Assembly (NCBI GenBank): GCA_030374765.1
Contig: JARGXX010000006.1
Location: 558,001-622,000 of the forward strand
DNA from: Agarophyton chilense
Taxonomy: Eukaryota > Rhodophyta > Florideophyceae > Gracilariales > Gracilariaceae
DNA length: 64,000 bases
Reading direction: 5' to 3'
The position numbers and the translations under genes were made by a program. This document shows, one piece after another, positions 19,164-59,100 of this stretch (the stretch's first letter is position 1; each line of letters opens with the position of its first letter). The notes below the pieces were generated by a model. It saw only the letters and a list, made by a program, of their open reading frames with translations, searched no databases and was not told the origin of the DNA.

Positions 19164-19566
19164 GAGCTTTAAGGTAAAGACAAAGCCTCACCGCTGTCGT
19201 CTCCGGCGGTTCTTTCCTCATCTGCACCACTGGGCCAACAAACCTCCCTGAGCGTGGATGGAGGCGATATAGAGGATCGATAGGGCGGTTCGGCAGCCAC
19301 AGCAGCGGTACTAAGAGTAGGGTTGATCACCAAGGGAGCATCAGGTAACGGCAGTGGCAAGGGAGTGGCGGGCTTTTGTGTGACAAAGTTGTGGCAGCGG
19401 GCAAAAAGGTCAGTAAGGAAGCCGAACTGCTCACTTTGGCCGAGCAGAAGTGCAGCACTTGCATTTGCCCCATTGGCAATGCGTGCTTACGCGCGTAAGA
19501 GTTGCAGATCGGCGGCAGAAAGACGACGTTCACGCTGCTCTCCCACGTTAGCGGGACGCTTCTTGT
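19164..19566 (-). pseudogene. Unknown host gene, 3' half, split by element A
   Basis: Minus-strand continuation of the gene at 29677-30434. Removing element A and one CTTGT copy joins EVYK to KRPANVGEQRERRLSAADLQ in one frame. A TAA interrupts at about 19496, then ARIANGANASAALLLGQSEQ and a Pro-rich tail (KPATPLPLPLPDAP) run to TAA. Function unknown. The stop and the 10-kb insertion make it non-functional. Confidence 0.6.
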
Positions 19567-20430
19567 TGTAGGACAATGCCCCCGAGGGGGAAACCCCACG
19601 AAGACGTCCGGATCTTCCTCTCACGAGGTAACCGGCGCGGTAGAGCCCTCCCAGGGATCGGCGCGCAATGCCGGGTGTAAGCCGGAGCCGAACCGTCGCG
19701 ACGGGCGCAGGGAGGCTGAAAGAAGCCGAGAATATCCGCGTAATGCGGTGCTTGCGTATCCTCTGAGGAGTCAAAACCCACAAGAGTGGCGAGCACGACA
19801 GGTGTCAGTGCGAGCCGCAAGAGCGGGAATTGCCCAATGAAGGGGAGGAAAAGGGAAGGAAAATGGGAACGGTGGCAAGAGGGCGAGGTTGACCACGAGT
19901 CGCATGAGGAAACTCGGGAATAGCCGGCACTGCCGGGTGTAGCAAACCGTATACACGGGCGGAACCACGAAAGTGGGAATAGATATCCAACACACGAAGG
20001 CTGCTTGAACGTCCAAGGGGGTTGGGAAGCCGTGCACCACAGGAAATCCCTCCGTAAGGAGTTGTATATCCGCGCAGGCGGTTTGACCCAGAGCCAAGAT
20101 CTGGAAGACCAAGATCATCCTTGTTGGGGAGACTTTACTGGACCGGCGGCCGCGAGGCCGGCAGCCTAAGTACTGTAGTCACCGTAGAATAGAATAAATA
20201 AAGTCTATCCTAAATAGCTAAATGTCCGTCTAACAAAGGGGCCAATCTGGCGGCCACGTGTCGCGCGGGCGCTGCGGCCACGTGTATGGCACCCGGTCCC
20301 GCCGGTGCATCACCGGCGTTCCGGCAACGCCGTGAAAACGGATTACTCCTACTCATGACGAGGTTGCACGCCGGAGGCTCCGGAAAAAACTTAAGTCCCC
20401 AAAAACCTCCCTGGAGGACGTTGCTCTTCA
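19567..20430 (-). repeat. 3' LTR of element A
   Basis: 864 bp, TGTAGGACAATGCC to GTTGCTCTTCA on the plus strand, paired with 28813-29676. Two CACGTG boxes at 20255-20260 and 20279-20284 and a CCAAT at about 20241. Confidence 0.93.
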
Positions 20431-20476: not shown

Positions 20477-22267
20477 ATGGCAGCTCGTCATGATAAGAGC
20501 GGGTCCGACTCCGGGTCTCCGGAAACCCACACACCTTCACCAAGGATCCCACGCACGCTCTCCGCATCCGATTCCAACAACAGCACACCAACACGCACCA
20601 TGTCCAACCCCGACCGTCATAACACATCCGCGACTCCCGCCCTTGGCGGTTCCACCGGCTTCCGGTCCGCGCTCCACCCTGGGGATATTACCAACCTCGC
20701 GTACGAAGACCGCCGTATTGGCGCCCGCTTTCGCAGACAGGCGGACCCACCGCAGTGGCCGATCTACGACGCCCTTGTGGGTGCGAATCCGAGAACTCGG
20801 CATGGCTCCGCGAGGTTGCGGTATGCGCCTTGGTTTCACCCATTGGCTGTCCGCGACGAGGATTTGATTCAATCCTACACCGATAACTCGGAGATGCTCC
20901 CGGGCGACCTGCCCGGCGTGGTGACCCTGTCCTGGGATTGGCGTAATCGTATCGCCATCCCGGTACACCACATACTCCGCCGACGCGGTGAATCCTCTGC
21001 GGAGGCTCAAGCCGAGCTCGTGCGGATCGCTTATCTCAGGCACCATCGGGCGCCTTTCGAGTTCCCGATACCGCCAGAGGTCGAATTCGACGTCCACCTT
21101 TACCGCACTCGCGGGGAAATGTCGTACTGTGACCTTCTAAACGAATTGGAAACCCTCGCTTGGAGGGGCACACCGATCGCTCGGCAAGAAGCCCTTTGCT
21201 GGGTACGACCGATTCTTCGGGCAGAGTTCCGCTACCAACCGCGGCAGTCGCGCTCGAACTTCCTTCAGAACTTCATCCGCGATGAGCGGCGTTGGCGGGC
21301 CCGGACCGGGTATTTCGTACCGTACCAGAACACGGAGATTGAGCGCATCGCGCCTGCTCACCGACGTGGTCGGTACGTCAGTCTCCCAGACTGGTGGTCC
21401 TCCTTGGAGGCGTGCTGGGGTTGCTTCATTGAGCTGCCCCCAGTCTTCACCTATGTAGGGTCGTCGTTCTTGAACGATCCCCAGTCGGGGTGGTGGTCCG
21501 TCATGGTAAGCGAATGGGCCGTCCGCACTGCGGCTTTTATCCTCGCTGAGGCGTACGACCAATACCGATTGTGGTACGTGCCACCGCGTGTGCGGGCTGC
21601 GATCCGCCGTTTGGACATGCGCATCCCCCTCGGGGGCTAGGCGAACGAAGAAGAGATGCTGGGCCTCCTCGACTTTGTGGAGGGGGTCCAGTGGGATGAG
21701 GTCCCGCTGGAGAACTCCCAACGCATTCAACCGCGTCGCGGGTCTGGCCCCGGATTCGGGAGGAATACCGCACTAGCGGGGGATTTCATCTACTTCGACC
21801 CCTGGGAGTACCACTAGATCAGCCGCGAGGAAGCGGAAGCCAACCGGCATGCGCCGCGTGAAGTCCCGGCCGACCACCCGCGAGTGTATGTCGACTCGAG
21901 CGACTATTACCGCGACTATGCGGATGGTGACCCGACGGTCGACAACGAACCGGAGGATCCGGGTTAAGCTCCGATGGAGGATGACGAGTCCGGCGAGGCC
22001 GGTGAGGAGTCCGTTGAATACGGTGGTGCGGCTCCATCCGGGGCTGCTGATGCCGTGCGGACGGATTCCTATCCGACTCCATCGGTGGCGGGCCCGCCTG
22101 CAACTGCCGCTGGCGCGGAGCGGGGCGAGGTCATCGCGCGCTTCCTTCGGGAGGTGGGGCTTCGCCCTTCCGAGATCTCGGGTGATGTGGCCGCCATACG
22201 GGATGCCTTAGCCAACCGCCTGGGCGGGGTCCACCTCGTGCGGAGGAATGACCGGAGCTTCCGGTAG
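20477..22267 (+). pseudogene. Antisense accessory protein gene of element A (aORF family), three stops
   Basis: Plus strand, opposite to gag-pol. One frame from ATG 20477 to TAG 22265 (596 codons), interrupted only by TAG 21638, TAG 21815 and TAA 21965. It aligns along its length with 34009-35865 (B) and 47180-49048 (C): APWFHPLAVRDEDLIQSY, then DVHLYRTRGEMSYCDLL, RPILRAEFRYQPRQ, LPDWWSSLEACWGCF and WYVPPRVRAAIRRLDM. The C-terminal block VIARFLREVGLRPSEISGD resembles C more than B. Trp-, Tyr- and Arg-rich; no membrane segment or known catalytic motif seen. Function unknown. Confidence 0.75.
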
Positions 22268-22583: not shown

Positions 22584-23654
22584 TTATCCCTCTTGGGCGT
22601 TTACCAGCGTGGCTGGGAGTGCGGTCCCCGCAAGGCGGTGGTATCGCATTACCGCGGAGCGCGGGAGGTGCTCGATGAGCTCCGGGGTGTCCCACTCCGG
22701 CCCGTATCCGTACCAGCGGGTCCGGTACTGGAGCACCCCGTGCTTATCGTAGCTATGTCCGACGATTCGGTCGAGGACGTACTCCTGCACGTTAACTTGC
22801 CGGCCTTGCCAGGTGGTGGTGGCCCGAGCCTCAGCGCCGCGTGGTGCTGGGCTCGTCGTCGCCTGTTTCGGGTCACCCGGTTTGTCATTCCGCTCTGCGG
22901 TTGTTGCCGGGTTGCCGGGGCTGCCGTACCGCTTCGCGGAAGTTGCCGGCGCGGCCGGGTTGTGTTTCCACTGGGCGGTAGGGGCTTCCCTGAAGTCCGC
23001 CCTTACCGCGAGTTTGCGGGGGTCCTTCCGTCTTGGTGACGGTTCGCCGGAGGCCTCCGCTTGATTTGCGGCATGCGGCGTTCCCATTGGTGGGCAGTTT
23101 CCGCTGTGCGGTGCGCCGTGGGCGGTGAGTGGTTCACCGTCCCGGCGATCCGCCTCCGCGGGGTGACTGTCAGCCAATGACTGGGATGCCGGGTGCCCAT
23201 TGGTCCGATCTCCCGCCCGGGTCACGTGACCTTGAGGACGGGTGGTCGGGCCGTCGCGGACGGTTGGCTCCGATTGTTCGGCAAGGGAGCCGGTTTTCGA
23301 CTTGTCGTCGCGCCCCTTTTCACCCATGGGGTTCGTACCGTTCTCAACGGATTGGCTCGCTAAACCTCCTTGCGCAGCGCCCGCCGGAGTAGCGGTATCG
23401 ACCGAAACGCTCGGTGTGCGACCGCGAATGTGCGGGGAGCCCTCAGTTGCTTCCACGCGATGCGGAGCGTCCGTAGGGTCTCGCTTCCCGGCTTCGGGTC
23501 TTCGAGCGCCTTGGTTCCCCTTTCGGGGTTGCGTGGCGGTCGGGTTGACCGCCGCGTCCCGCGGGAGCGGATTGGCGTCCGGCGACGATGACGGTTGCCC
23601 GCTCGGGGGCCTTGCCCGGGGTGTCCGGTTAAACTTCCGTTGCGAAGGCGGTGC
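22584..23654 (-). pseudogene. pol C-terminus with chromodomain, element A
   Basis: In the same frame as reverse transcriptase and RNase H but after one TAA at 23655-23657. A Pro/Thr/Arg-rich linker leads to the chromodomain near 22800-22600: VQEYVLDRIVGHSYDKHG, TRWYGYGPEWDTPELIEHLP. Chromodomains of chromoviruses bind modified histones and steer integration into heterochromatin. The tyrosine and tryptophans of the aromatic cage appear present. Confidence 0.75.
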
Positions 23655-28809: not shown

Positions 28810-28812
28810 ATT

Positions 28813-32249: not shown

Positions 32250-33011
32250 ATGAGCCATAATAACCCCGAGCATGCAGCCCAAGTGGTAGATCTTCTTACG
32301 GAAAATGCGCTTGAGCGTGAAAACAACTTACAGCAGTACTCCTCAAAAAACCGTCATTGAGACAAAGAAACCGATTCAGCAAGTTCCAAATATGACTCGT
32401 TTTATTTCCAAAATCCATCACATAAAATCATGGAAATGATTAATTCTTCTGCAAAGAATTAGACATACTGTGGAATAAGATGTCAACAATTATCGAAGAA
32501 AATTGGAAGAGTGGAAATGGGCGTCGAAATTCGTTTACGGATACTTTTTTTATGACGCTAGCAAACATGCGGCATGGAAAAAAATGGAAATTTCTTGGCC
32601 AACTATTTGACATCAACTGGGCTACATTTGAGAGGTTGATAATGATATTTGTCCGTTCTGTTTGCTATTTATTAAACAATAACTATGTCGATGAAGTCGA
32701 TGAGCTTTGGCAATAAAGCGTATTTTGGGCCGCAGTTCGGGATTCAAAATTTTTAATTTCTTTATATACGCGACAGATGTTATTCTCCAACATTCTTTCC
32801 GTCCAAGTGGTTGCATGGCCGAAGGAAAAAATATTTCAGCGGCAAACATAAGCTTTATTGTCTTAAAAAAGAATTCTTTGTACTTCTATATGGGATGACA
32901 ATTAATATTTCTCCACATGCCCTTCGCTCAAAAGCAATCATTGGTTTATTTAAATCAAATTTACGGAATCACAAAAGTATGGTGCAAAAGAGAAAAGATG
33001 AAGGTAATAGT
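32250..33011 (+). pseudogene. Harbinger-like DDE transposase, 5' half, split by element B
   Basis: Possible start MSHNNPEHAAQVVDLL at 32250; the clear part begins at ELDILWNKMSTIIEENWK and continues FMTLANMRHGKKWKFLGQLF, DINWATFERL. After a frame change, FFIYATDVILQHSFRPSG holds the first catalytic aspartate, then YFSGKHKLYCLK in a shifted frame. It ends KRKDEGNS exactly at the insertion and resumes at 43327. The pattern matches a DDE_Tnp_4/Harbinger family common in repeat-rich eukaryotic genomes. Several frameshifts and stops: long dead. Confidence 0.7.
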
Positions 33012-33927
33012 TGTGGAGCGAAACCCGGCGACGGGAAGTGCTCTCAAGGTGTTCGAAGCCTTGCTCCCTGGGGGGAGGCAGACTCAGAGACAGAGCCCTC
33101 CGTTCCACCCGTAGTGTGGGGTGTAACTCCCACGAGGGATTCCGGCAGTACCGACGGAGGTGAGGGGTAGAAACCGTTGGATCGGGAATGGGTATGGGTA
33201 TCCCAAAGAATGGGGGAAAATCCGGCGAAGAGGGAAAACGGGGCGAGGGTCGGGCACTAACAGGCACCGGACCCGAGAACCAGAAAAGGGGCGAAACAAC
33301 AAAAGAAACCCAATACAGGGGCGAAAACCTGTCCTCGAAAGGAAACCCAAAAAGCACGCAACAAGTAAGCAGAACCCCCACGGGGTATCGTGCACGCAGG
33401 TCGTCTGAGCGGTCCCAAGGGGGTGGTTGCACGGAACCCAAACGTGGGCACTCTCCAAGTGGAGTCGTGTCCCTACGCAGGCGTTGCTAACCAGAGCCCG
33501 TTCCGGGTTGTAAGGCCGAAACGATGGCGACGAAGAACCTCTAAAGGTATCGAAGACCAACCTTGGTTCCCATTTACTTTGAGCTTCGGACTGTCAGATC
33601 TCATCTCCCTAAGTAGGGCCCACTAACTAAACTCTACAGTAGTGCACACCTGCTCAGGGCCATACACGTGAAGATCCAACTGTCAGGGCCCAAAAATCCA
33701 ACGTTCTAACAAATATCCGAAAATCGGTGCCAAAATTAAGCCACGTGTATCACGGGGCCAATCCAACCATGGGCCATCCGAATTTTCCCTTATAGGCGAA
33801 TTCTAACCAGAAAACAGTGCCACCTCAGCACACCTTAGAGGGGATCATAGTCATAACCCTCGGAGGGTTCAATCCTCATTCTATGAGTTGCATCTTCAAG
33901 TATCCCCTAACTGGGCGTTGCTCTACA
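33012..33927 (-). repeat. 3' LTR of element B
   Basis: 916 bp, TGTGGAGCGAAACCC to GTTGCTCTACA on the plus strand. CACGTG boxes at 33665-33670 and 33743-33748; a CCAAT at about 33759. Confidence 0.93.
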
Positions 33928-33943
33928 TCTCCCCCTCCTTAAG
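33928..33943 (-). other. Polypurine tract of element B
   Basis: The minus strand reads CTTAAGGAGGGGGAGA directly before the 3' LTR. Confidence 0.75.
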
Positions 33944-34008
33944 ACGAGGAAGAACATTCCGAGCCGCGGGTGTCTCGCTTTCCGGTCACTATACATACTT
34001 CTCTCCCA

Positions 34009-35865
34009 ATGGGGTCCTTCACCACTTCTGAGGATCGCCACAAAACCGGCACATCGGTACAACTTTCTTCTACTTCTCCGACTTTCGGCGATCAGCAACT
34101 TCTCGCAACAGCAGTCTCAACCAGCCCTCTCAAGGGAATGAACCCATACGTCCTCAACCCACTGTCGGGGCCATCGGCCTCCGCGCCGGCGGACAACGAA
34201 GCTCCCCAGCAGGGTGGATATTTCTCCGGTTTGGATGCGGCTCCGTCAGGTACCGAACCTTCCGCCTCGGCGAGCAACCGACATCCTCAGGAGGATTTGG
34301 ACATTAACGCGGTGGCGTGGAACTCCGCTCATGCGATGCCCTTGGTAGCAAACTCCAGAGGTTGGATCTCAAACGAATCCTTTCGAAGTTGGAGTCCCCT
34401 TACCGATCCGGTGATATATTCCCGCGCTCCGTGGTTCCATCCGACAGCGGTTCGCGACGATGAGCTCATCGACTCCTACGTGGAGGACGGCTTCTTGCCG
34501 GGTGGCCTACCTGTCGAGGTTGTACGTTCTCCCGATTGGAGGGCGCGGGTAGCCATAGAGCCTCAGTACCTATACCGCGGTCGCGGGGAGTCCCTGGACA
34601 AGGCTCGTGCAGCGATGGCGGCTCTGGCCTACCAGCGATTGGAGAGGTCAGGCTTTGACCATCTGGTTCCCCCGGAGTACGGGTTCGATGTCGCCTATTA
34701 CCGCACGTACGGCGAGGTCTCCTACGGGGATAACCTGGCAGCCTTGCCCGAAGCCGAGTGCCGCGGACCGAGTTTTCCTCTCCGAGAAGATATGCCCCAG
34801 TGGAGTCGTCCCATCCTTCGGGCTGAATTCAGGTACCTTCAACGGCAGTTTACCCAGTATGGGTTCGATCGACGCGTGCGCTTCGAGCGCCGCTCGCGCT
34901 CCCGTTTCGGGTTCCTTGTCCCGTATCCTCACGTGGAACTGGAGCGTATCTGTAACACGGCGAAGGTTGGGCGATTCGTGCCCCTTCCAGCTTGGTGGAG
35001 TAAGGTCGAGGTCCCCCGAGGGTGCTTTGCTGAACTGTCCCCATGCATCTACTATATCGGGTCTCGTTTGATGCACGACCCGAACTCGGGATACTGGGCC
35101 CTCGTTGCAGCCGAGTGGGCAGCCCGCGTAGCGGCGCACCTCCTCTGGGATGCTCATGACTATTTCCGTATCTGGTATATTCCTCCGATGCTACGGACCA
35201 TCATGCGTCAGATCGACCTTGTCCCAGCGTTGGGTTCGGCCAGCAGCGTGCAGGACCTGTATCCAATCTTGGACGTGATCGACAACACGCAATGGGATCG
35301 AGTTCCAGTGGAAAATCAGCCCGCAGGTGAAGGATCCGCGCGAGACAAGTCTCCTGGCCGGTACGATCCGGGCTCCGGTAACTGGGTCTATTACAATCCC
35401 TTCGAAGGGGTTCGCATCAGCGCGGCGCAAGCACGGGCGCTGATGGACTCGCCTCGACCGATGCCGGTGGGACACCCGACGGGGTTCATTTATACCGACG
35501 ATTACGAGTACGAGCCTCCAGTAGACCTGGACGATCCAGCGTTGGATAACGACATGCCAGCTCCTAGTGGAGTACTCCCTGTAGAGCCATCTGCACCCTT
35601 CCAACCAGTGGGAACGACCTCAGCTGCAGCGGCGAATGCATCCGGTGGCGGTCCATCTGCTCCCCCCGGGTGGGGTGTGAACACCCTTGCGCAGGCGCCG
35701 GTTGCCACTCCGCAAGCGGATAGTGTGCGACAAGGCCTCGTGAACGCGGGCATTCCGATTCCCTCGGGTATGACGAATGTGAGCCAGATGTTGGCTTTCG
35801 CCTCGGCGTACCATCAGGGTCAGAATCCCAACGGTGGGGCGGGTCTCTCCTCGGGCTTTCCGTAG
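34009..35865 (+). CDS. Antisense accessory protein of a gypsy chromovirus (aORF family), intact
   Basis: 618 codons from ATG 34009 (in-frame codons upstream to 33970 lack an ATG) to TAG 35863, on the strand opposite gag-pol. Residues 1-135 are Ser/Thr/Pro-rich and look disordered, with a GGYFSGLDAAP motif (69-79) shared with C. The conserved core starts at APWFHPTAVRD (140-150) and includes GFDVAYYRTYGEVSYGDNLA, RPILRAEFRYLQRQ, FLVPYPHVELERI, LPAWWSKVEVPRGCFAELSP, ALVAAEWAARVAAHLL and IWYIPPMLRTIMRQIDLV. The tail is Gly/Pro/Ala-rich. No signal peptide, membrane helix, zinc finger or catalytic signature seen. Retained open while pol of the same element is broken, which suggests selection. Function unknown. 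Confidence 0.75.
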   Translation: MGSFTTSEDRHKTGTSVQLSSTSPTFGDQQLLATAVSTSPLKGMNPYVLNPLSGPSASAPADNEAPQQGGYFSGLDAAPSGTEPSASASNRHPQEDLDINAVAWNSAHAMPLVANSRGWISNESFRSWSPLTDPVIYSRAPWFHPTAVRDDELIDSYVEDGFLPGGLPVEVVRSPDWRARVAIEPQYLYRGRGESLDKARAAMAALAYQRLERSGFDHLVPPEYGFDVAYYRTYGEVSYGDNLAALPEAECRGPSFPLREDMPQWSRPILRAEFRYLQRQFTQYGFDRRVRFERRSRSRFGFLVPYPHVELERICNTAKVGRFVPLPAWWSKVEVPRGCFAELSPCIYYIGSRLMHDPNSGYWALVAAEWAARVAAHLLWDAHDYFRIWYIPPMLRTIMRQIDLVPALGSASSVQDLYPILDVIDNTQWDRVPVENQPAGEGSARDKSPGRYDPGSGNWVYYNPFEGVRISAAQARALMDSPRPMPVGHPTGFIYTDDYEYEPPVDLDDPALDNDMPAPSGVLPVEPSAPFQPVGTTSAAAANASGGGPSAPPGWGVNTLAQAPVATPQADSVRQGLVNAGIPIPSGMTNVSQMLAFASAYHQGQNPNGGAGLSSGFP

Positions 35866-36384
35866 TTCCGCCTTCGGGCAATTTTGGGGCCCATAGCTTG
35901 GCAACAATAGTAAACTTCTGATATTTGCATAACTTCTTTTCTTCTTCCTTCCTAGGATCTTAACTTCTACTTCTTTTCTTCTTCCTTCTTAGGATCTTCT
36001 TCATCTTCGTCTTCATCTTCTTCCCTTCCTAGGGTCCAATCTTCTTCTTAATCTTCTTCTCCACTTCGTGGGTCTTCTTTTTTCTTTTTTTCATCATAAA
36101 CTGTCCCGATAACCGGTGCTGTGTTTCCCGGTTAACGGCGCTAGGCCGAGGGCCAGTAGACATTCCCTCTCAATACGTGTTCTTCGGGATACTCTCCTCA
36201 ATTCCTTTTCAGAGGTCCAACATCTTCCTCACTTCGAGATCGCATCCACACCAGTTCCCGTGGTGGCTTACCCGACTTGGGCACGATCCAGACCTGGAGG
36301 CAAGGTTACCCGAGCGCGTCGGTGATAGGATAAAACCTTAGACCTCGGAAGGTGCTCAATGGGTTCCACTGTATCCTCATCAGG
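35866..36384 (-). other. Polypyrimidine tract and spacer between the convergent frames of B
   Basis: 35930-36090 is almost pure C/T on the plus strand (TCTTCTTCC repeats), downstream of the antisense stop and 3' of the chromodomain on the minus strand. C has a similar tract at 49129-49250. No gene in the rest. Confidence 0.6.
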
Positions 36385-36615
36385 CTAGAATCCGTACCAT
36401 CGGACTTGGTAGCAAACTTCTCCCTCGGGGGTGTAGATGTGACGCACGATGCGATCGATAACGAATTCCTGCGGGTACACTTTTCCCTGTTCGGGCTTTT
36501 CTTCCATCTTGGAACGCTCTAGTTCCCTTGAGGGTGTCAACGTAGGGTCTAGACACACCCCGGTGGGTTCTTTTCCGTGTTGCGAGCGGGTCTCAGCACT
36601 TCGTCCAAACGGCAC
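36385..36615 (-). pseudogene. Chromodomain fragment of element B
   Basis: The minus strand encodes YPQEFVIDRIVRHIYTPEGE then YQVRWYGF and a TAG-like stop; downstream the frame would have continued GPDGTDSSL-like sequence. It matches the first two-thirds of the chromodomains in A and C. It is not in frame with the upstream RNase H. Confidence 0.6.
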
Positions 36616-37108: not shown

Positions 37109-38557
37109 CTATTCCCATTCCATAACGGAGAGCCAAATTTGGTCAACCTCGTCGTCGAGATCTTCCCCGTGCGGGTCCGCTGACACAGCTCGTTCCCAAG
37201 AAAGCGGGGTTTGAGTGTGCGACACCTCAGTGTCTCTTCCGCGGCGGCGGGTGATCGTCGCCTCTGTAGGCGTTCCAGGTGCGGAGTTCCCCACACGACT
37301 CTCCCTAGGCGGGGTTTCGTCATCTTTTCTGACGTCGTGCTCGGCTGGATCGGCGGTGATGTCGCTACCCATACGCTGGGGTTGTGACTTCTCTGTCGCC
37401 GGCTCGGTCGGGCTCGCCGTCTCACTGTGAGAACTAGATTCCCTGTGAGGGCGACTGGCTGACGCCGAAGCATCGTCCTGCGAAGGAACTAAATCCTCCT
37501 CCCCCTCCTTAGGCGGAGAGCCAGGAGGCTTGATTACCTCCGGTGGGGGAGTAACTCTGTAAGAGTTCGTTGACTGGGCCCTTGAGGGAGCGGGCCCAGG
37601 TTCAGGAGCATCCGAAGTTTCCGCTGTGGTTCCCAAGCGGGATAGTGCATCAGCCTGAGTGTCCAGCTTCCCTTTCTTGTACAGGATCTCAAAGTCGAAT
37701 TCCGACAGTCGGAGACGCCAGCGCATAAGGCGGCCCGAGGGTTCGGAGATCTCCAGGAGCCAACGCAAGCATGCGTGGTCCGTATGGACTTTGAAACGAG
37801 TACCCATCAGATAGGGGCGAAGTGTAGCTAAGGCCCACACAATGGCTAAACATTCTTTCTCGGAGACCGAGTAGTTCCTTTCATGGACATTCAGGGAACG
37901 TGACCAGTACCCAATAGGGTGACGTTCACCATCCTCAGAGGATTGGAACAGTGCACACCCTACTTGGTTTGCACTAGCATCGGTGTCCACTTCGTAAGGG
38001 AGCCCAGGATTGGGTAGAGCCAAGATTGGCGGTGATGTTACGGCATTCACCAGTGCCGTGAAGGCAGACGCTTCCGCGTCGCCAAAAGATTCCAGTTCAA
38101 CTGGTTGTCCCTTCGTCAGGAGCCTGTTGAGGGGGGTGGCAATATCCGCAAAGTTCGGGACGAATCGGCGATACACGTTACACAGACCTAAGAAGGATCG
38201 CAACTCCGTTTGAGTTTTCGGGTGTTTTGCTTCCTTCAAGGATTTCACTCGTACTTCATCGATTGAAAGCTGTCCGGGACGGATGATATGACCCAGATAT
38301 TTAACCGAATCGGTGAAAAACTCGCACTTCTTGAGTTTCAAGGTGATTCCCGCGTCGCGGAGTATCTTCATTACGTCCCTGACGTGTTCGAGGTGATCAT
38401 CCAGGTTGTTGGAGAAGACAATAATGTCGTCTAAATACACTAGACACGTACTACACTTGAAGGGAGCCAACAGAATGTCTATCGCCCGTTGAAACGTTGC
38501 GGGGGCATTTGTCAACCCAAAAGGCATCCTCCGGAATCGGAAAGTCCTTGATGACAC
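37109..38557 (-). pseudogene. Reverse transcriptase (C-terminal part) and RNase H of element B
   Basis: 482 codons: FRRMPFGLTNAPATFQRAID, catalytic LVYLDDIIVFSNN, thumb, then RNase H with YEVDTDASANQVGCALFQ (D), NYSVSEKECLAIVWALATLR (E), VHTDHACLRWLL (D). After KLDTQADALSRLGTTAETSD the integrase is missing; a Ser/Pro-rich linker with PPGSPPKEGEED follows and ends TAG-like at 37109. The frame joins the upstream half by a frameshift near 38555. Confidence 0.87.
37495..37513 (-). other. Internal polypurine tract-like sequence, element B
   Basis: Minus strand CCTAAGGAGGGGGAGGAGG, coding for PKEGEED. Another copy lies at 39162-39176 in the protease-reverse transcriptase linker (DPKEGEDT). Confidence 0.45.
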
Positions 38558-40146
38558 ACGAAAGCCGTTTTGTCTCGATCTTCCTCCCTAATAAGGACTT
38601 GCCAGTAGCCCGAATTGGCGTTGAGGGTAGAGAAAACAGTAGCGCTCCCAAGGGAGTCGATGTATTCGTCCATCCGAGGGATCGGGTACACATCCTTAAT
38701 GGTTACCTCGTTCAGGCGACTGTAATCGATTCAGAAACGCCACGATCCATCCGGTTTCGGAACTAACACCACTGGTGAGGCCCAAGCGGACTGGGCAGGT
38801 TCAATTACGCCCGCTTTAAGCATCTTCTCCACCTGAGATTTCTCCTCTTCCCGAGCTTTCGGTCCAGCCCTGTAAGGGTGTTGGGCAATAGGCCGAGTGT
38901 TCGGTAACAAGTCGATGCGGTGTTCTGTAATCCCAATAGTTCCAAGGGAACCATCCAACATGGGGGTAAATTCACGAAGCATGTGCCTCAGCTTCTCCCG
39001 ATGAGATGCGGGTACATGGTTGAGATCCCATTTCTCCAATTCCTGAACAGAATCCGTCTGGTCTGCTCCAGTGATAGGGGCCGTAACCTTCTGAGGTTTA
39101 AAGTATCCAGCGTGTGGAGCTACAGCCGTATGCTCACCGTCTTCCGCGATTTCTTCAGTGTCCTCCCCCTCCTTAGGGTCCGCCACACCAAGGACCTCTG
39201 CGATAGAGATCTTTGTAGGTACGAACGCATGCGGGTGTGGAAGAACAGAACCCAGGATCTGGTGTTTGACCAAATGCTGCGTTGTCTTTCCAAAGTTGGC
39301 TACCAAAACCTTGAAAGGTTTATCCGGTTCCACGGAGACAACCCCATTCGCAAGGGCGAGTTGACGCCGCGTATACAGAGACGGGTTCGGTTGTACCACA
39401 TGCACACCAATTTGCTTGGTAACAACTGTGACCCAAACCTGGGTTTCTCGCGGGATAGCCACTGACTTTGCAACCTTTACCCGTGTAGACACCGGGTCCT
39501 TCTTCACAGATTCCTGCGCGACAGGGAGAGGAACGCGTGTTCGCGCTGCTCCCTGTAAGGGTGTACGAACGATTGGGATCGTAGACCCGTCTTCGAGTTC
39601 GACAGTTCTATTCCGAGGACGGATGGCTTCCACGAAGCGGTCGCAAAAGTCACAACCCAGTATGACTGGTGCTGCAAGTGACTTGCATACAATAAACTCT
39701 AGTTGAACGAGATAGGAGCCTAACCTCACCATGAGGGAAATTGTACCCAGTGTCCGTAGCGGGTTGTTGTTCGCATCGGCGATATCCAAATGTGGACCGG
39801 TACGAACTTGAACCCGGAGCAGCGGGGGTAACAATTCAACATGAATTAAGTTAGGAGCGGCTCCTGTATCCCGGACAGATATTTGACGAACCATAAACTG
39901 GTTTGACAGGCCGAAGTCGGCGAATACTTTATAATTCCGCTTGGCCATTACCATAACTCGATCCGGAATACCGAGATTACGGGACCGTATCCACGGGCGA
40001 CGGAGGACACTAAAGTATCCCGAGTTAACGTCGGTGTCAGCCGTTCTCCTTGAAAGGATAGTCACAGCTGGGGAGCGAAGCTGGAGCGCCTCGGGCGTCT
40101 TCAACTCCGACTTAGAAGACGCCCCTCCCGCAGGAGAGACTCCCAA
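38558..40146 (-). pseudogene. Protease and N-terminal reverse transcriptase of element B
   Basis: Begins in the -1 frame overlapping the gag end by about 46 bp (GVSPAGGASSKSELK). Protease: SVLRRPWIRSRN, VRDTGAAPNLIHVE (D-T-G), VCKSLAAPVILGCDFCDR. Linker EVLGVADPKEGEDTEE. Reverse transcriptase start: HRIDLLPNTRPIAQHPYRAG, WASPVVLVPKPDGSWRF, then TGA at 38731 in place of the expected Cys of CVDYRRLN, and continuing NEVTIKDVYPIPRMDEYIDS. It would process the polyprotein and begin cDNA synthesis. Confidence 0.87.
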
Positions 40147-42179
40147 GTTTTGTTTTTCGAAGCGGACCCCACCGAATTCGGTGCAGCTGCCTCGAAGAGG
40201 ACCGGTTGTTCCCCGTTCGCGGGTACAAGTTCTGTATCCCTGTCAGCAAGGTGAGCTCGGAGTATCCTTTGTTCCTCATAGGACCTACTCGGGACTCGAG
40301 CTTTCTCCTCAGGGGTCAGAGTCTCGTACTGAGCGATAATTCGTGAACCCTCCCGCAGGGGAAATGTGCAGTCTGGTGCTTTGTGCCCACGGAGGTAACA
40401 CAAATAGCAAATCAGCTCTGCCGGGTTCGGTTGTGGACGTGAATCCACGCGACGTGGTGCTGTATCCCTCCATCCGGGGGGAGAGAACCGAGCAGCGGTA
40501 TTCGCAAAAGGTAGCGATGCGGCTGGCACCCTCCGTCCGTGGGTATAGAGCGCAGGGTCTTCATCCGTAGTCGGAGCGGATGTCGACGGCAACTCAGACG
40601 TACCCATAGATTCGGGGTTACTTCCCATGAAGTGAATGTTATCATTGACCCCCACAGGGGCAGAGCCTCCTGAGAGTGACAAAGACGAGTTACCTCCATC
40701 GGCGAGGAGTGCACGTGTCGGCCGACTCTTTCGGTTCTGCTGGGCACGGAGAGTATCCCCCTCAGCCTGGGCGTACTGAAACAGTTCCAAGTAGGTCAGC
40801 TTGCGCTTCTCTTCCCAATGTCGGGCAACCAATGCCCTTATCGAGGGGTCCAAACCATCCACAAACATGGAGCATCTCTCGTAGGCGGGGAATACATTCC
40901 CGCATCGGTGAAACGCTTTATTCAAGCGAGTTGAATACACCGTTTCGGTTTCCATCGGCTTCTGCCGCGTATCCCTTAATGCAAGGATTGCTTCCTGAAT
41001 CGCATTTCCAGTAGCGTATGACCTCAAGAGGTACTGCACCGCTTCGGGCCAGCACGTGACTCACCCTTCCGAGGCTCGGGATGATCCACGGACGGAGTTG
41101 AACTGGTCTTCAGCCATTCCCTTTAAGAAATAGGGTAATGCAAGATACGCTTGCGCTTCACTCATACCGAGGATGTCAGCCTTCTGGACGAACCTCGCAA
41201 GGAAATCGAGCACCAGAATTGGGTCTGTTCCTGTGAACTCCCTCTTCTGTAGGGTGATGCTCAGCCTTTTGATGTAGTCCTTGACCTTACCCGTTCCGCG
41301 GGATGTTCGATCTCCCGAAGGCTTATCCAACCGGTAGTAGCGGTACGATAGCAGCTTCCGATAGAGAGGATTCGTCGGCTTCAGCTCCCTTAATACAAGG
41401 TGTTTCCTACCCTTCTTCCGGGTACGGATTGCCCCTTGAGAGGTGTAAGTAGCCTTCGACCGAGTCGCCCGGGATGACCGGCGTTCATCTTCACTATCCG
41501 AAGATTCGGAGGACGAACTCGATGGCGAGCGATTGGGATCGGAATCCGATAAATCCTCTTGGAGGTAAACCCTCTTCTTGGACTTGCGGCTGTCCCGTTT
41601 AGCGGAGCGGTGTTCTTCGTCTTCCGAAACGTCGGGTTTATCCTTCGAGGCTTCTGCGTCTCCGTCCATACGGATAATGGCCTCGAGGGTGTCCAGCCGA
41701 GCTCGGAAGCGTTCCGCTTGCACGCGGTGTTCCTCCACGAGGCTCCGGTACTCCTGGATAAAGACCCCAGGGGTACCAAAGCTTTCCAAAAGGGAGTTCA
41801 CATCCCTCCTCAGGGTACGAAGGTCATCGGCGACTCCCCGCACCGGGGCGTCCTTCACCTTGAGGCGGAGGGTAGTAACCTCCTGAAGGAGCTCGACGTG
41901 AGCCGCGTTGGCGATATCGATTCGAGTCTCCAGGCGCTGTAATTCAGGGTCGGCCCGACTTCGGGGTGCTGCTGAGGGGGTCTCCACCACTGGAGCTGGG
42001 CCCACAGCCACGACCTCTCGAGGACCTGAAACCACTGAGGGTGCTCTCCGAGTGTCCGGATCGATACCGGAATCGTTCCGGACTTCGGGAATTGAGCTCC
42101 TCGACCTAGGCGGGGCCGGGGGCACTGAATCCGCTTGACGGTTCGATCCAGTCCTGGAACCACAGGTAGGCGGCGACAT
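40101..42179 (-). pseudogene. gag of element B, one stop
   Basis: One frame from ATG 42179 (MSPPTCGSRTGSNRQ) to TGA 40101, interrupted once by TGA at 41061 (SEG*VTCWPEA; A and C have an extra residue codon there). Residues 80-180 have heptad-like leucines (coiled coil), followed by a Ser/Asp/Glu/Lys low-complexity region. Capsid: KDYIKRLSITLQKREFTGTD, LDFLARFVQKADILGM, CWPEAVQYLLRSYAT. Zinc knuckle CYLCYLRGHKAPDC. Pol starts in the -1 frame within the last 46 bp. Confidence 0.87.
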
Positions 42180-42386
42180 GCTGCAGACACGACACCGACG
42201 ATTCGGGGTAACGATGAAATTCGATCACGAGATTCCCGGAGAACGGATGACGTAACACAAAACAAAAATAAAAACCAATTCCAACCTTTCCAAAGGGGAC
42301 CACTACAACAAATCTTCACGACGGTGCTTCCTCTTCCAAGAGATATTCCAACACGTGGATGACCAACCCAAAAGTCCGAGAACGGA

Positions 42387-42404: not shown

Positions 42405-42406
42405 CT

Positions 42407-43321
42407 TGTGGTGCAAAACCCGGCGACGGGAAGTGCTCTCAAGGTGTTCGAAGCCTTGCTCCCTGGGGGAGGCAGACTCAGAGACAGAGCCCTCCGTTCC
42501 ACCTGTAGTGTGGGGTGTAACTCCCACGGGGGATTCCGGCAGTACCGAAGGAGGTGAGGGGTAGAAACCGTTGGATCGGGAATGGGTATGGGTATCCCAA
42601 AGAATGGGGGAAAATCCGGCGAAGAGGGAAAACGGGGCGAGGGTCGGGCACTAACAGGCACCGGACCCGAGAACCAGAAAAGGGGCGAAACAACAAAAGA
42701 AACCCAATACAGGGGCGAAAACCTGTCTTCGAAAGGAAACACAAAAAGCACGCAACAAGTAAGCAGAACCCCCACGGGGTACCGTGCACGCAGGTCGTTT
42801 GAGCGGTCCCAAGGGGGTGGTTGCACGGAACCCAAACGTGGGCATTCTCCAAGCGGAGTCGTGTCCCTACGCAGGCGTTGCTAACCAGAGCCCGTTCCGG
42901 GTTGTAAGGCCGAAACGATGGCGACGAAGAACCTCTAAAGGTATCGAAGACCAACCTTGGTTCCCATTTACTTTGAGCTTCGGACTGTCAGATCTCATCT
43001 CCCTAAGTAGGGCCCACTAACTAAACTCTACAGTAGTGCACACCTGCTCAGGGCCATACACGTGGAGATCCAACTGTCAGGGCCCAAAAATCCAACGTTC
43101 TAACAAATATCCGAAAATCGGTGCCAAAATTAAGCCACGTGTATCACGGGGCCAATCCAACCATGGGCCATCCGAATTTTCCCTTATAGGCGAATTCTAA
43201 CCAGAAAACAGTGCCACCTCAGCACACCTTAGAGGGGATCATAGTCATAACCCTTGGAGGGTTCAATCCTCATTCTATGAGTTGCATCTTCAAGTATCCC
43301 CTAACTGGGCGTTGCTCTACA
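42407..43321 (-). repeat. 5' LTR of element B
   Basis: 915 bp, TGTGGTGCAAAACCC to GTTGCTCTACA, followed by the target duplication ATAGT (43322-43326). Confidence 0.93.
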
Positions 43322-45050: not shown

Positions 45051-46235
45051 ATGGACACCGACAGAGCCCCTAAAATCCCTGATCTCGACATTACCAAGTT
45101 TTTTTCATGGTTTCTAGCACTCAAAACTTATCCAGCAACCATAGATGCACTCGAACATTCACAAAGCAACGCTCAACCTCCAACCGATGAAACAGCCAAC
45201 AAAACATTCACCATCAAGAAGAATCGTCTGCTCTCAGCCGTGCTCAGCAGCGTCGCCATAGACATTCTGGGCTTACTTCTGATATCAGGAGAAGAACCCT
45301 TTCCCCACGACCTAATTCAAAGCATCATCAAGCACATCTCACAAACCTCCAAGGAGGATCACCAATTCCTCAAAACGGAGGCCGAAAGCATCAAACTAGA
45401 AGACATTACCAAGATCGTAACGTACTTGAAAGATCATTTCGAAGTTCGAAAAAAAATAGTCGCCGCAAGATATCCGAACATAGCGGAAGAGGACATAACT
45501 ATCGACTTCCTAATATATGGACTGAAGAAGCACGCCACACTCACACGAATACTAGGTCACATACTTGCGAACAAACCCGCCACAGTTCGGAACTTCATTC
45601 GAATCTTTAAGTAACTCAACAACCTATATCAACTGGCACAAGCTCCAGTTCCACCGCAGCCGATATCAAGTTTCACCGGGGACTATAACACACTACGTCC
45701 GAACTACAGATGCCCGGCATACCCCGTACGACGCATACCATTTAAGCAACTCTGTTTCTACCATAACTCCCTCGGCATACGATGCAACCACAGCGACGCA
45801 CAATGCCGTGATCAGTCCCATCCCAAATTTCAAAGGCACAACACATAGGCCAACTACATGCACGCCGGACTACATCAGCACGTATCTGCTACCACCACCC
45901 CCTCACCGCAGAAGAGCTATCCCAACATCCTCCCTCAACAACACACATCGGCACACGATAAAGACGTTGGTCCTGAACAAGAAACGGAAGTCAACGGTAC
46001 GTTTGTCGTAGACACTGGAGCACACCGGACGCACATCTCACAACCAACAGCCAACATGACACCGCTCCCCAAAAACCTTCTAACACAAATTGCCACATCA
46101 CAACAGAGCCGATGAACCCACAGTGGCACCCTACACTTGGAAACCAACAAGAATAATGCAATACGCACTTACGCTGTCGCGAACCCCCACCTGCGTCACA
46201 ATCTCCTCTCAGTCAATGATCTTGCTACCAGATAT
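45051..46235 (+). pseudogene. gag and protease of copia E, 5' part
   Basis: One frame from ATG 45051 (MDTDRAPKIPDLDITKFF) with TAA at 45612 and TAG near 45847. Capsid-like DHFEVRKKIVAARYPNIAEE matches D. CFYHNSLGIRCNHSDAQC is a zinc motif of C-x2-H-x8-H-x4-C form. Protease active site FVVDTGAHRTHIS (D-T-G). After a frame change the protease tail HLRHNLLSVNDLATRY runs into element C. Confidence 0.75.
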
Positions 46236-47144
46236 TGTAGGACAACGCTTGGAGCGGAGAAACCACGAAGATGTTCGGGATCTTCCTCTCTTGAGAGACA
46301 CGCCTCAGGCGGAGGAGACGCGTCCCAGCGGAGCACAGAAACAGAGCTACTCTGGAAAGGCAAGACGGAGTCGGGCGCACGACGGAGTCGGGTGTAAGAC
46401 CGAGGCCAATCCGGCGGGATATACCTAGAGTGTTTAGGTGAGCACGGCACAGTCCGGGGTGTGACCAATCCTAGGCGGAGCGGTATCACGGCGATTGTCG
46501 TAATAGGAGCGAGGAAACACTTGTATGAAGGAGAATACAAGCGGAGTGAGTGAGGCAGCCACTCACGAGAGCCAATAAGGAAAACAAGAGGAAAACAGGG
46601 GCGAAACCCTATACAGGGGTGAGACTACGACAAGTGTCGGCGATTAAATATGAACCCACGGTGGTGGTAGCACTCTGTTCGACCGAGGGGTGCATGAACT
46701 AAAGTGCGACGGGCGCTCCCGCAGTATGCGGTGAAGACGCGCCGAAGGCGAAGAGTTCAGAGCCAAGACTCCCTCCTTGGGATCTCTCAAGAGGGTGTTT
46801 ACTGGGGAGCAGTGCTCAACCTCCTAAATATTGTGGCGCGCGGCCCCTGACAGTGGGCTTGCGCCCGAAAAATAGACACTAGATAGCGATAGCGCAGCTA
46901 AATAACTACTAGAAAATACTACATAATACTAACCATTAGGTAGAATCCGGGCCACGTGTGGCACGCCTCGCACTCGAGCGTCGGCATCCGTGCAGTACGC
47001 GTGTTCCACCAGTGTGTACTTCCGGTCCTAACCGGCCGTCGGCACTCAATATCGGAATAGTTTGTCATAGCCCAACCTAGTCCTCAAGCGAGCGAACTCT
47101 CTAAGTCCTGCGAAGAAACCCCCCTTGAAGGGCATTGTCCTTCA
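46236..47144 (-). repeat. 3' LTR of element C
   Basis: 909 bp, TGTAGGACAACGC to GTCCTTCA on the plus strand. The first bases resemble the LTR of A. A CACGTG box lies at 46953-46958; a second is intact only in the other LTR. Confidence 0.9.
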
Positions 47145-47179: not shown

Positions 47180-49048
47180 ATGGCGGGGAGGCAACGGTCC
47201 AACCGGCATAAGAGCGAGCCGGTTAACGCGTCCAGCGACCACTCGACTGTCGAAGGCAGAGCTGCACAACCGAACGACAAACGCACCAACGCGGTAACCA
47301 CTCCTCGAACTTCGAGCGCTCTTCCGCATCGTACGCCAACTTCCCGCGACCACATCCCGATAACTCGGCGACCAGTAGTCCCGATGAGCGGTGGAAACAA
47401 TCCCCGCCGGGGTTACTTCTCCGGTTTCCATTCGGCTCCCCTTCCGCGGGGGAGTGCCTCGTCAACCGCGCCGAGCCGATCACGGGGTCCCGTTGAAGCT
47501 TCAAGCCACATCACTTCTGCCGAGGACACCTGGCCCAGTTACGACGAACTCGTCGGGTTAAACCCGCGTCAACATGCGGCGATTCTCCGCAGAGCTCCGT
47601 GGTTCCATCCGACAGCGGTCTTCGACGAAGAACTCGTGGCCGCGTATGCTGATGGCAATGCGCGTCTCCCGGGCGAGCTGCCGGCTTTGATCATCACTTC
47701 GTGGGACTGGCGACGCCGTGTGGTGGTTCCCATTCACGCAGTTCTGCGGCGAAGGCGCGAATCGGCGGAAGAGGCACATTGTATATTCGTCCGCATCGGC
47801 TACTCACGGATCAGCCGGGCGAACTTCCAATACCCCATCCCCGAGGAATTCGGCTTCGACCTAAGGATGTACCGGACTCAAGGTGAGATCGGCTATTGTG
47901 ACCGCTTTGCGGCGTTGGAAACTTAAGCATGGCGCGGTCAACCGCGAGCGCGTCAAGAAGCGATCTGCCGGGTCCGTCCAATCATTCGTGCCGAGTTCCT
48001 TCATCTTCGTCGTGAGTCCCGATATCGGTGGTTACAGAACTTCATCCGCGAGGAGTGTCGGGGCAGATCCCGCTTTGGGTTCCTTGTTCCTTATCAAAAC
48101 ACGGAGATGAACCGGATGAGTCCCTTCTATCAGTTCGTGCGATACGTTCCCCTGCCTGGGTGGTGGTCCTCCGTCGTGGTGTGCCCGGGATGTTACGTGG
48201 AGTTGCCTCCAGTCGTCTCCTATCTGGGCTCGTACCTCCTCGAGGATCCGCACCCCGACTTATGTTCCGTGGTCCTAACCGAATGGGCAGTCGGCGCCGT
48301 GGCGTACATCTTGTGGGAAGCCTACGACCAGTATCGACTGTGGTATCTTCCTCCGCGTTTGAGTGGTTACATCCGGCAGCTGGACCTTCAACTCCCTCTT
48401 GGAGGTGTCAATAACGCTGATGAAGCTCAGGAGCGCATCGACATCATCGGGCGTGTCGACTGGACTGTTGTGCCTGTCCGGCAGAGCGGCCGTGGTCAAG
48501 AAACCGGTGGGGCTGATCGGTCTCCGGGGTGTTCCACGCTGTTGGCAGGAGATTTCATCTTCTTTAACCCATGGGAGCAGCAAGAGATCTCCAAGGCGGA
48601 GGCGTTGGCACTCTGGATGGCTCTGCGAGGCATACCATACGGGCACCCCGTGGGGTTTGTCAACTCGGATGACTTCTACTACTCCTATGGCGGTGATGAT
48701 CTCCCGGAGGAGGAGGGCGAATACCGTGGCGACGAGGTCATGGGAGACGTTGGAGATCCCGATGGTGCCGATACTACGGTGCAGCAGGCGCGGGGAGCGA
48801 CTCACGCAGGTGCGGTCGTCGATCCAGTGGCGGCGGCGTTGCCGGACGAACCGGAAGTTATCGAGGTTCCCATACGCCCAGAGGCGGCCGTGATCTCCCG
48901 GTTCCTTCGTGGTGTCAGACTAAACTCGCAAGCGGCGAGCGGCGACATCGGTACGATGAGAGACGCCGTCGTGGCACGCCTGGCCGGCGGGAGTAACTCC
49001 GCTAGCGATTCGGCTGGCGCGCACGGTAATCCGGATTCTTCCAACTGA
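47180..49048 (+). pseudogene. Antisense accessory protein gene of element C (aORF family), one stop
   Basis: 622 codons from ATG 47180 (MAGRQRSNRHKSEP) to TGA 49046 in one frame, broken only by TAA at 47924-47926 (ALET*AWRG; A has LETLAWRG). Shared blocks: RRGYFSGFHSAP, APWFHPTAVFDEELVAAY, FDLRMYRTQGEIGYCDR, FGFLVPYQNTEMNRM, LPGWWSSVVVCPGCYVELPP, EWAVGAVAYILWEAYDQYRL, WYLPPRLSGYIRQLDLQL and C-terminal VISRFLRGVRLNSQAASGD. Frames upstream to 47135 lie in the LTR and lack ATG. Function unknown; same strand and position as in A and B. Confidence 0.75.
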
Positions 49049-49260: not shown

Positions 49261-50037
49261 TTATCCCACTTGGGCTCGGTCTATGGTAGCCGGCAAAGCC
49301 GTAACAGTACAACGATGATACTGTACCACCTTTGACCGAGGTAGGTGCTCTATCAGTTCGTCTGAATCCCGTTCGGGGCCGTACCCGTACCAACGGACCA
49401 AGTATTGGATATACCCCTCTGGGTGGTAGGAGTGCTCCAAAATGCGTCCGACCACGAACTCTTGTCGGTACACTTCCCGGCCATCCCGTATAACGGTGTC
49501 GCTATTTCCGGGTGGTACCCGTCCTGAGCCCGAGGGTACCGAATTGATCACGCGTTGGGCGGCTTCGCTCCGGTCGGACCGTGTAGCGCGCAAGTCAGTC
49601 CTCGGCTGAGTGCAATGGCGACCCGCCTTCGGCGGTTCATCTTCCCCAAGTGCCTGGTTTGCTTCGGCGTTTCCCACTCCGGTTGGAGGGCCCACACCGG
49701 CGGGTAACCCGGGTGGTCGTTCTGCTAATCGGCGTGGTGAAGCTCGCTTCGGCGGTGAGATTCGCTGGGGCGGTGGCGCATTGTCGCACCTCTCTGTCCC
49801 ACAGCGAGGTTCCGTGTAGTCACATGAGGGTTCCAATGGCTGGCTGTCCGGCGTTGGCGCCGTGGATGTATCCGCCTCCCTGTGCGGGGTACTTGGCGGT
49901 GCGTCGTCCACTCGTACTGTATCAGGCTGCGGTGCGTCGAGCGCATTTGCATTCCGTGTTACACGTGTGGTGACACCTCGGCGAGTGTTGTTAACGTTAT
50001 CGGCAGCTGCGTTCTGAGGCTTGGATAGCGACTCCGT
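49261..50037 (-). pseudogene. pol C-terminus with chromodomain, element C
   Basis: Same frame as integrase, after one TAG at 50038-50040. A Pro/Arg/Thr-rich linker precedes the chromodomain EVYRQEFVVGRILEHSYHPE, LVRWYGYGPERDSDELIEHL, then a short tail. It would target integration to chromatin. Confidence 0.75.
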
Positions 50038-56369: not shown

Positions 56370-56387
56370 TTCTAAGCCGGGAGACCA
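56370..56387 (-). other. Primer-binding site of element C
   Basis: Minus strand TGGTCTCCCGGCTTAGAA, one base different from A and B, three bases inside the 5' LTR. Confidence 0.7.
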
Positions 56388-56390
56388 GTT

Positions 56391-58832: not shown

Positions 58833-58930
58833 TGACAGACCGTACACGTTGCCTCCAGACCAAGGAATAGATAGTCCACCAGACGCCGACGTCGACCCAA
58901 GTAAAGAGAGACATCTTGTGCACTCCGTCA
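58833..58930 (+). repeat. 5' LTR of copia D
   Basis: 98 bp, TGACAGACCGTACACG to CACTCCGTCA. Very short for an element with full coding capacity. Confidence 0.9.
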
Positions 58931-58942
58931 GGTTATGGGCCC
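58931..58942 (+). other. Primer-binding site of copia D, initiator tRNA-Met half-molecule type
   Basis: GGTTATGGGCCC immediately follows the 5' LTR; its complement GGGCCCATAACC is the anticodon arm of initiator tRNA-Met. The copia of Drosophila has the same core. Confidence 0.75.
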
Positions 58943-59100
58943 TCACTCACAAATCGATCCCACATCCGCACGATCCCGCCGACTCCGCCGCCGCCAAGAG
59001 CAAGCACCATTCGTCGACATAACAGCGGACCTCTTAAGACTCGTCTACCAAGAACAAAAGTATACCTTACAAGCAGATAACACCACACACTATCACACCA

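What the first reader, a model, noticed from the sequence alone, without database searches (positions are those of the whole stretch)
34009..35865. Conserved long antisense gene in three gypsy chromoviruses
A, B and C each carry, between chromodomain and 3' LTR and on the strand opposite gag-pol, a frame of 596, 618 and 622 codons encoding clearly homologous proteins (shared APWFHP, RPILRAEF, LP-WWS and WY-PP blocks). The protein is open in B although B's own pol has a stop, a frameshift and no integrase. Antisense frames are known in some plant LTR elements and in deltaretroviruses, but I recognise no relative of this protein. Conservation of position, strand, length and sequence across elements with different LTRs argues for a real, selected function such as regulating element transcription, silencing or particle assembly (inference).
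Basis: partly seen in the sequence, partly recalled or inferred. Interest (0 to 1): 0.88.

Follow-up and report, generated by a model that had tools for sequence, protein, structure and literature searches.

The report
Selected antisense gene in seaweed retrotransposons
Jumping genes of a red seaweed carry, on the opposite strand to their usual genes, a second gene for a nearly lysine-free protein that evolution has kept intact across related seaweeds, so it probably helps the element deal with its host.

Summary
Real, but details need correction. The B frame (34009-35865, +) is open for 618 codons. The A and C copies in the window are interrupted; intact relatives (591, 622 codons) exist elsewhere in the genome. 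All named homologues are gracilarialean red algae. In 45 of 45 distinct places with enough flank a chromodomain lies downstream on the opposite strand; in 42 of 45 a known LTR ends 36-181 bases before the gene match. Selection acts on this frame: between families core omega is about 0.05, 161.5 lnL above omega 1; no other frame is both stop-free and constrained. Gracilariopsis chorda homologues fall one beside A, one on the B side of the tree, so both lineages look older than that split unless transferred. No Pfam, NCBIfam or PDB relative; AlphaFold failed. New: a lysine desert (1-8 Lys per full-length protein, against 2.8-5.4% in gag-pol), in all 7 lineages checked and beyond base composition in A and C, not clearly in B. 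Best reading: an LTR-driven accessory protein of the known aORF-3R kind, acting in trans on host control. Expression and function are untested.

The parts
33011..33927 (-). B element, 3' LTR (917 bp); U3 end faces the antisense gene
   Evidence: 98.5% identical to 42406-43321; strand from gag-pol
33928..33945 (+). pyrimidine-rich tract next to the LTR = complement of the presumed polypurine tract; lies in the antisense gene's 5' leader
   Evidence: sequence read; role inferred
34009..35865 (+). antisense gene of element B, 618 codons, open
   Evidence: selection
34189..34263 (+). stretch coding residues 61-85, which holds a short motif (F-R/H-S-A-P-L-P-like in several lineages) in the variable N-terminal tail; degenerate in B
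   Evidence: no clear selection of its own
34411..35523 (+). conserved core, residues 135-505
   Evidence: omega about 0.3 on the tree of 23 copies
35689..35826 (+). C-terminal module, residues 561-606, two predicted helices
   Evidence: omega 0.4, gain 5.9 lnL
36268..36483 (-). B chromodomain region, with one in-frame stop in this copy
   Evidence: named by alignment to the A segment, which hits Pfam Chromo below its cut-off
37109..38587 (-). B pol piece: end of RT, and RNase H; no integrase hit
   Evidence: Pfam hits
38731..40242 (-). B pol piece before RT
   Evidence: no Pfam hit of its own
40101..42224 (-). B gag region (two open pieces, 40101-41060 and 41061-42224)
   Evidence: named by position, no Pfam gag hit
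42406..43321 (-). B element, 5' LTR
19566..20430 (-). A element, 3' LTR (5' LTR at 28812-29676, 97.7% identical)
20477..21640 (+). A antisense gene from its ATG to the first in-frame stop (387 codons); homology continues to about 22228
22584..22799 (-). A chromodomain
46227..47144 (-). C element, 3' LTR (5' LTR at 56384-57282, 92.0% identical)
47180..49048 (+). C antisense gene region, with an in-frame stop at 47924-47926
49261..49497 (-). C chromodomain region

Best explanation
Each of the three element families carries a third gene, read from the strand opposite gag-pol. SHOWN: position, orientation, open frames, purifying selection in this frame only, lineages shared with Gracilariopsis, variable tails around a conserved core of about 370 residues, and very few lysines. 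INFERRED: (1) the mRNA starts in the U3 part of the 3' LTR, because in 41 of 45 places the LTR ends only 36-82 bases before the ATG, and that gap includes the complement of the polypurine tract; (2) the protein acts in trans as an accessory factor that helps the element against host control (silencing or restriction), in the manner of retroviral accessory proteins, rather than being an enzyme or a capsid part; (3) its lack of lysine protects it from ubiquitin tagging while it works, possibly next to a ubiquitin ligase. Step 3 is the least certain.
For: Anatomy: chromodomain on the opposite strand in 45 of 45 distinct places with flank, LTR just upstream in 42 of 45. Selection: omega 0.35 over 23 distinct open copies; core best at 0.3, 139.6 lnL above omega 1; three-family core 0.05, 161.5 above 1, against 0.02 (edge of the grid), 178 above 1, for an RT-RNase H block of the same elements. 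Frame control: in the core the other five frames carry 1-18 stops per sequence. Decay: 41 stops in 71 x 618 codons of the antisense gene and 34 in roughly 30,000 codons of RT, counted by eye, so copies look open at insertion and then decay much as RT does. Age: one G. chorda protein groups with A, the other lies on the B side. Lysine: 1 of 591 (A), 2 of 622 (C), 6 of 618 (B), 1 of 617 and 5 of 565 (G. chorda); against base composition lysine is the most depleted residue in A and C but above expectation in 7 of 8 gag-pol pieces.
Against: No RNA or protein evidence was available, and no promoter was shown. No fold: AlphaFold mean pLDDT 36 and 42. In B the lysine shortage is within reach of base composition (314 of 5000 draws as low), and one of 8 gag-pol pieces is also slightly short of lysine (2.8% against 3.1% expected). 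The AAA/AAG triplets are about as rare in the +2 frame as in the coding frame. Silent sites between families are near saturation (dS about 2), so omega between families is rough. Gag has about half as many stops per codon as the antisense gene. The N-terminal motif shows no clear selection on its own. The copies in the codon tests were chosen for being open and are best-scoring matches, not a random sample.
Confidence: 0.55

Rival explanations
1. HBZ-like regulator: the protein acts in the nucleus on the element's own or host transcription, damping sense transcription and limiting copy number.
For: Same place and strand as HBZ and as maize Grande gene23, which is nuclear (PMC7264820, PMC11963269, passages). 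Variable tails and many arginines.
Against: No Pfam domain at all, so no bZIP or TRP28. Core net charge runs from -9 to +4. A purely self-limiting gene should be easily lost from the fittest copies (inference), yet it is open in 41 of 71 B and 65 of 97 A matches (by eye).
Confidence: 0.22
2. A structural or assembly protein of the particle (a second gag-like or env-like protein).
For: Length and conservation like a structural protein; found beside gag-pol in the three window elements.
Against: No profile similarity to a B gag piece (probability 0.0), no Pfam gag or env; lysine-poor while the main gag piece is lysine-rich.
Confidence: 0.08
3. The element captured a host gene in antisense, and the function is that of the host gene.
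For: Transduction is known for LTR elements (PMC7264820, PMC11963269, passages); two G. chorda relatives are annotated as genes, on contigs of up to 445 kb and 70 kb.
Against: All 45 distinct places with flank have a chromodomain on the opposite strand; no cellular family matches. But only best-scoring copies were seen, and the G. chorda surroundings could not be read.
Confidence: 0.1
4. The antisense RNA matters (double-stranded RNA control) and the frame is incidental, or is conserved through the opposite strand.
For: Antisense transcripts without coding capacity are known, e.g. micropia (PMC7264820, passages).
Against: Codon-position identity 0.56/0.64/0.34 (A-B), with selection in this frame; stops in all opposite-strand frames.
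Confidence: 0.03

Closest known systems
Antisense additional ORFs between pol and 3' LTR (aORF-3R): maize Grande gene23, rice RIRE2, Silene Retand (TRP28 domain), bean PvRetro13, Botrytis Boty
   Same: LTR elements, same position and strand, kept in most copies, unknown function (PMC7264820, PMC11963269, passages seen)
   Different: Red algal chromodomain elements; unrelated protein with no Pfam match (so no TRP28); ATG mostly 36-82 bases from the LTR, whereas Grande gene23 is said to have its own promoter upstream of the gene (PMC7264820); lysine desert; selection measured here
Deltaretrovirus HBZ / APH antisense genes
   Same: Antisense gene beside the 3' LTR; LTR promoter inferred here and stated for HTLV (PMC7264820, passages)
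   Different: No Pfam domain, so no bZIP (that HBZ has one, and that it is much shorter, is recalled); in B the gene does not overlap the chromodomain frame (402-base gap)
Lentiviral accessory adaptors (Vif, Vpr/Vpx, Vpu)
   Same: Only a functional analogy: accessory protein that may work next to ubiquitin ligases (PMC8360603, PMC6212966, starts of abstracts in the listing; Vif recalled)
   Different: Opposite strand, no homology shown, no binding data
Lysine-desert proteins (VHL, SOCS1, CRL receptors)
   Same: Lysine-free stretch of at least 150 residues (definition in PMC10665810, passages) met in all 7 lineages checked; 584-610 residues in A, C and one G. chorda protein
   Different: No sequence relation known; ubiquitin link unproven; that paper also finds such stretches to be more disordered and richer in A, G and P, which could be part of the cause here

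Membership tests
[quoted passage not shown]
aORF-3R (antisense additional ORF between pol and 3' LTR) | Present in all or most copies, not one or a few | tested here: inconclusive
   many copies have it: 71, 97 and 110 scored matches for the B, A and C queries (best-scoring only, lower bounds); elements lacking it were not counted
aORF-3R (antisense additional ORF between pol and 3' LTR) | Transcribed antisense | not testable with these tools
   no RNA data at hand
Retand TRP28 antisense proteins | TRP28 domain (PF04195) | tested here: not met
   no Pfam match at E up to 1 in 20 members, up to 10 in 4 members
Chromovirus (Ty3/gypsy with chromodomain) | Gypsy-type RT-RNase H, chromodomain after integrase, RT in the chromovirus clade | tested here: inconclusive
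   RT, RNase H and (in C) integrase hits; Chromo 20.8 bits is below Pfam's cut-off 25.1; RT phylogeny not made
HBZ / APH | bZIP domain (recalled), antisense 3' LTR transcript | tested here: not met
   no Pfam domain; transcript untested
Lysine-desert protein (PMC10665810 definition) | Lysine-free stretch of at least 150 aa or 50% of length | tested here: met
   B 171, P0001 183, P0002 238, P0004 244, A 584, C 588, P0003 610
Ubiquitin-ligase adaptor (Vif/Vpr-like) | Binds a ligase and a host target | not testable with these tools
   needs experiments

The most novel reading that the evidence does not exclude
A retrotransposon-encoded antisense protein that evolved to be almost lysine-free so that it can sit on the host's ubiquitin machinery and have a silencing or restriction factor destroyed without being destroyed itself: an independent, antisense counterpart of the lentiviral accessory adaptors, in red algae.
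Probability: 0.12. Interest if true: 0.88.

Novelty: new variant of a known kind. Interest (0 to 1): 0.6.

Why it matters
Antisense genes next to the 3' LTR are known in plants, but the two papers seen call their function unknown. Here one is held under strong purifying selection in large families of a red alga and shared with another genus, and it has an odd, testable property: hardly any lysine. If it acts against host control, it opens element-host conflict in red algae to direct test.

Tried and rejected
Fungal origin, first assumed from the genome size and used for the early literature searches, was dropped when all named homologues proved to be Gracilariopsis and Agarophyton (four of nine homologues are unnamed). 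Chance frame or opposite-strand constraint: rejected. Gag duplicate: rejected. Relatives in IMG/VR (64 pattern matches) and prokaryote genomes (35 pattern matches): none confirmed. PDB: none at E up to 10. PHROGs: two single-member hits at E 0.17 and 0.37, taken as chance. Structure: two AlphaFold jobs gave pLDDT 36 and 42; no fold search was run because such models give meaningless matches. The N-terminal motif as a selected unit: not supported by omega (gain 1.2 lnL, 21 codons). A first codon-model comparison fixed kappa as well as omega and timed out; it was replaced by profiles over kappa. Searches held one C copy twice (L038 = L052); one search repeated the main tests without it and changed little. 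No paper on this gene was seen in the listings of searches (several listed only part of their hits); the library lacks most subscription papers. PMC3248453 on fungal LTR elements has no antisense passage (term search); PMC12477816 on Ectocarpus has none on antisense genes (passages).

Full report
WHAT WAS CHECKED. The window lies in an unnamed assembly of 79.76 Mb in 135 contigs. The named relatives of the antisense protein come only from Gracilariopsis chorda (two proteins) and Agarophyton chilense (three partial ones, 81-94% identical over 30-40% of the core); four further relatives are unnamed. Both genera are Gracilariaceae, red algae. The published G. chilensis assembly (76.07 Mb, 138 contigs, 48.9% GC; PMC10388701, passages) is similar but not the same; the species is not settled.

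The frame 34009-35865 is open for 618 codons from an ATG. LTRs of element B are 33011-33927 and 42406-43321, 98.5% identical; A's LTRs are 97.7% and C's 92.0% identical. Translated comparison of the three elements shows gag-pol and chromodomain matches in minus-strand frames and the antisense protein in the plus strand. The A copy has three premature in-frame stops and the C copy one, so only B is intact here.

HOW GENERAL IS IT. Searches of the whole genome scored 71 (B), 97 (A) and 110 (C) matches out of 1859, 2094 and 1589 candidates. Counted by eye from the listings, 41 of 71 B copies, 65 of 97 A copies (query: first 434 residues of the A frame) and 33 of 110 C copies (query: last 373) have no stop inside. 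These are the best-scoring copies, so the fractions are not genome-wide. As yardsticks, stops per 1000 codons are about 0.93 for the B antisense gene (41 stops, 71 x 618 codons), about 1.1 for RT (34 stops in the 87 first-piece matches, codons summed roughly from the listing) and about 0.44 for gag (18 stops, 113 x 362 codons). The antisense frame decays like RT after insertion; gag is cleaner.

Among the loci held (not a random sample), 45 distinct places had enough flank, the three window copies included: 21 B, 12 A, 12 C. All 45 had a chromodomain match downstream on the opposite strand, and 42 had an LTR ending 36-181 bases before the gene match: 36 or 39 in nine C copies, 47 in twelve A, 80-82 in twenty B and 181 in one B, where the LTR is of the A type. 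Of the three exceptions, L039 and L042 do have the LTR, but their gene match starts late; L038 keeps only the last stretch of a C-like LTR.

SELECTION. Twenty-three distinct open copies (7 A, 11 B, 5 C) give pairwise dN/dS of 0.54-0.61 within families, where neutral decay since insertion is mixed in, and 0.25-0.40 between families, with dS near saturation. These copies were chosen for being open, which removes nonsense changes but not missense ones. A codon model gives omega 0.35; the core (369 codons) is best at 0.3 with 139.6 lnL over omega 1, the tails (200 codons) at 0.6 with 13.0. Finer: residues 135-320 0.2, 321-505 0.4, C-terminal module 0.4 (gain 5.9), N-terminal motif 0.6 (gain 1.2); linker and residues 1-60 near neutral, residues 86-134 0.45 with gain 3.8 (with one copy held twice). 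One sequence per family: core 0.05, gain 161.5; RT-RNase H block of the same elements 0.02, the edge of the grid, gain 178. Control: of the other five frames, four are best at omega above 1; the fifth (-1) is best at 0.2 (gain 52), which I take to mirror the gene's codon positions, and has 15-18 stops per sequence. Identity by codon position is 0.56/0.64/0.34 for A-B.

AGE. A maximum-likelihood tree of 16 proteins puts G. chorda P0003 (and unnamed P0002) beside A with full support, and P0004 (and unnamed P0001) on the B side of the deepest split (100/100). P0004 and P0001 sit on long branches, so their exact place is less sure. Two lineages thus look older than the Gracilariopsis split, unless elements moved between species. 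Four Gracilaria species alone are dated to about 100 million years (PMC12502185, passages).

THE PROTEIN. No match in Pfam, NCBIfam or the PDB, and none convincing in PHROGs. Layout: a variable N-terminal tail with a short F-x-S-A-P-x-P-like motif in several lineages, a conserved core with many invariant W, R, Y and P, a variable linker, and a C-terminal module.

LYSINE DESERT. A has 1 lysine in 591 residues (position 7), C has 2 in 622, B 6 in 618, G. chorda P0003 1 in 617 (position 7) and P0004 5 in 565, P0001 5 in 581, P0002 2 in 488; across the open copies the range is 1-8. Gag-pol pieces of the same elements have 2.8-5.4%. Given each gene's own codon-position composition, as few lysines arise in 3 of 5000 draws for A, 7 for C, 314 for B. 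Lysine is the most depleted residue in A and C and fourth in B (after H, C, T); it is above expectation in 6 of 6 gag-pol pieces and in 7 of 8, the exception being B 40101-41060 (2.8% against 3.1%). Asparagine, whose codons also begin with AA, is above expectation in all three antisense genes. AAA/AAG triplets number 6, 1 and 2 in frame (B, A, C) and 10, 12 and 14 in the +1 frame, but only 4, 2 and 6 in the +2 frame, so the frame comparison is not clear-cut. All 7 lineages checked meet the 150-residue definition of a lysine desert (PMC10665810, passages). In that paper such regions are frequent in the ubiquitin system and lysines added to VHL lowered its stability; they are also more disordered than average. 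This is a lead for function, not proof.

MECHANISM. The short, constant distance from the LTR suggests that the 3' LTR drives the gene, as stated for HTLV (PMC7264820, passages); no promoter was tested. Selection in large, recently active families and conservation between genera argue that the protein helps the element. I favour an accessory factor against host control; a self-limiting regulator is the main rival.

NOVELTY. Position and strand are those of the known aORF-3R kind (PMC7264820 and PMC11963269, passages only). The protein family, the red algal host, the measured selection and the lysine desert are new as far as the listings of searches show. In PMC7264820 the words algae and chromovirus do not occur.

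Noticed in passing
37109-38587 (B), 22584-26030 (A): The A and B window copies show no integrase hit. Of 87 scored RT matches in the genome, 17 run through the B frame to its last residue in one piece, as if sharing the same deletion, several in open frames over 1000 aa; the other 70 stop near residue 326, and 24 second pieces (residues 320-492) lie apart from them. This suggests an integrase-less lineage that multiplied, probably mobilised in trans.
   Followed up: partly
L030:296-1342: A B-type antisense gene with an A-type LTR match (867 columns, 95%) ending 181 bases upstream: nested insertion or recombination between families.
   Followed up: no
L038:560-780: A C-type gene whose upstream LTR keeps only its last stretch, next to sequence unlike the C LTR.
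   Followed up: no
8510-10414: Copia-type gag and gag-pre-integrase/integrase pieces on the minus strand.
   Followed up: no
13504-15552: Open frame of 682 codons with a pyridoxal-dependent decarboxylase domain (Pfam E 4.4e-24), a likely host gene.
   Followed up: no
57448-62605: Five neighbouring open frames of 254-439 codons on the plus strand in a region of strong GC skew (-0.31 to -0.38 from 58001 on), not examined.
   Followed up: no
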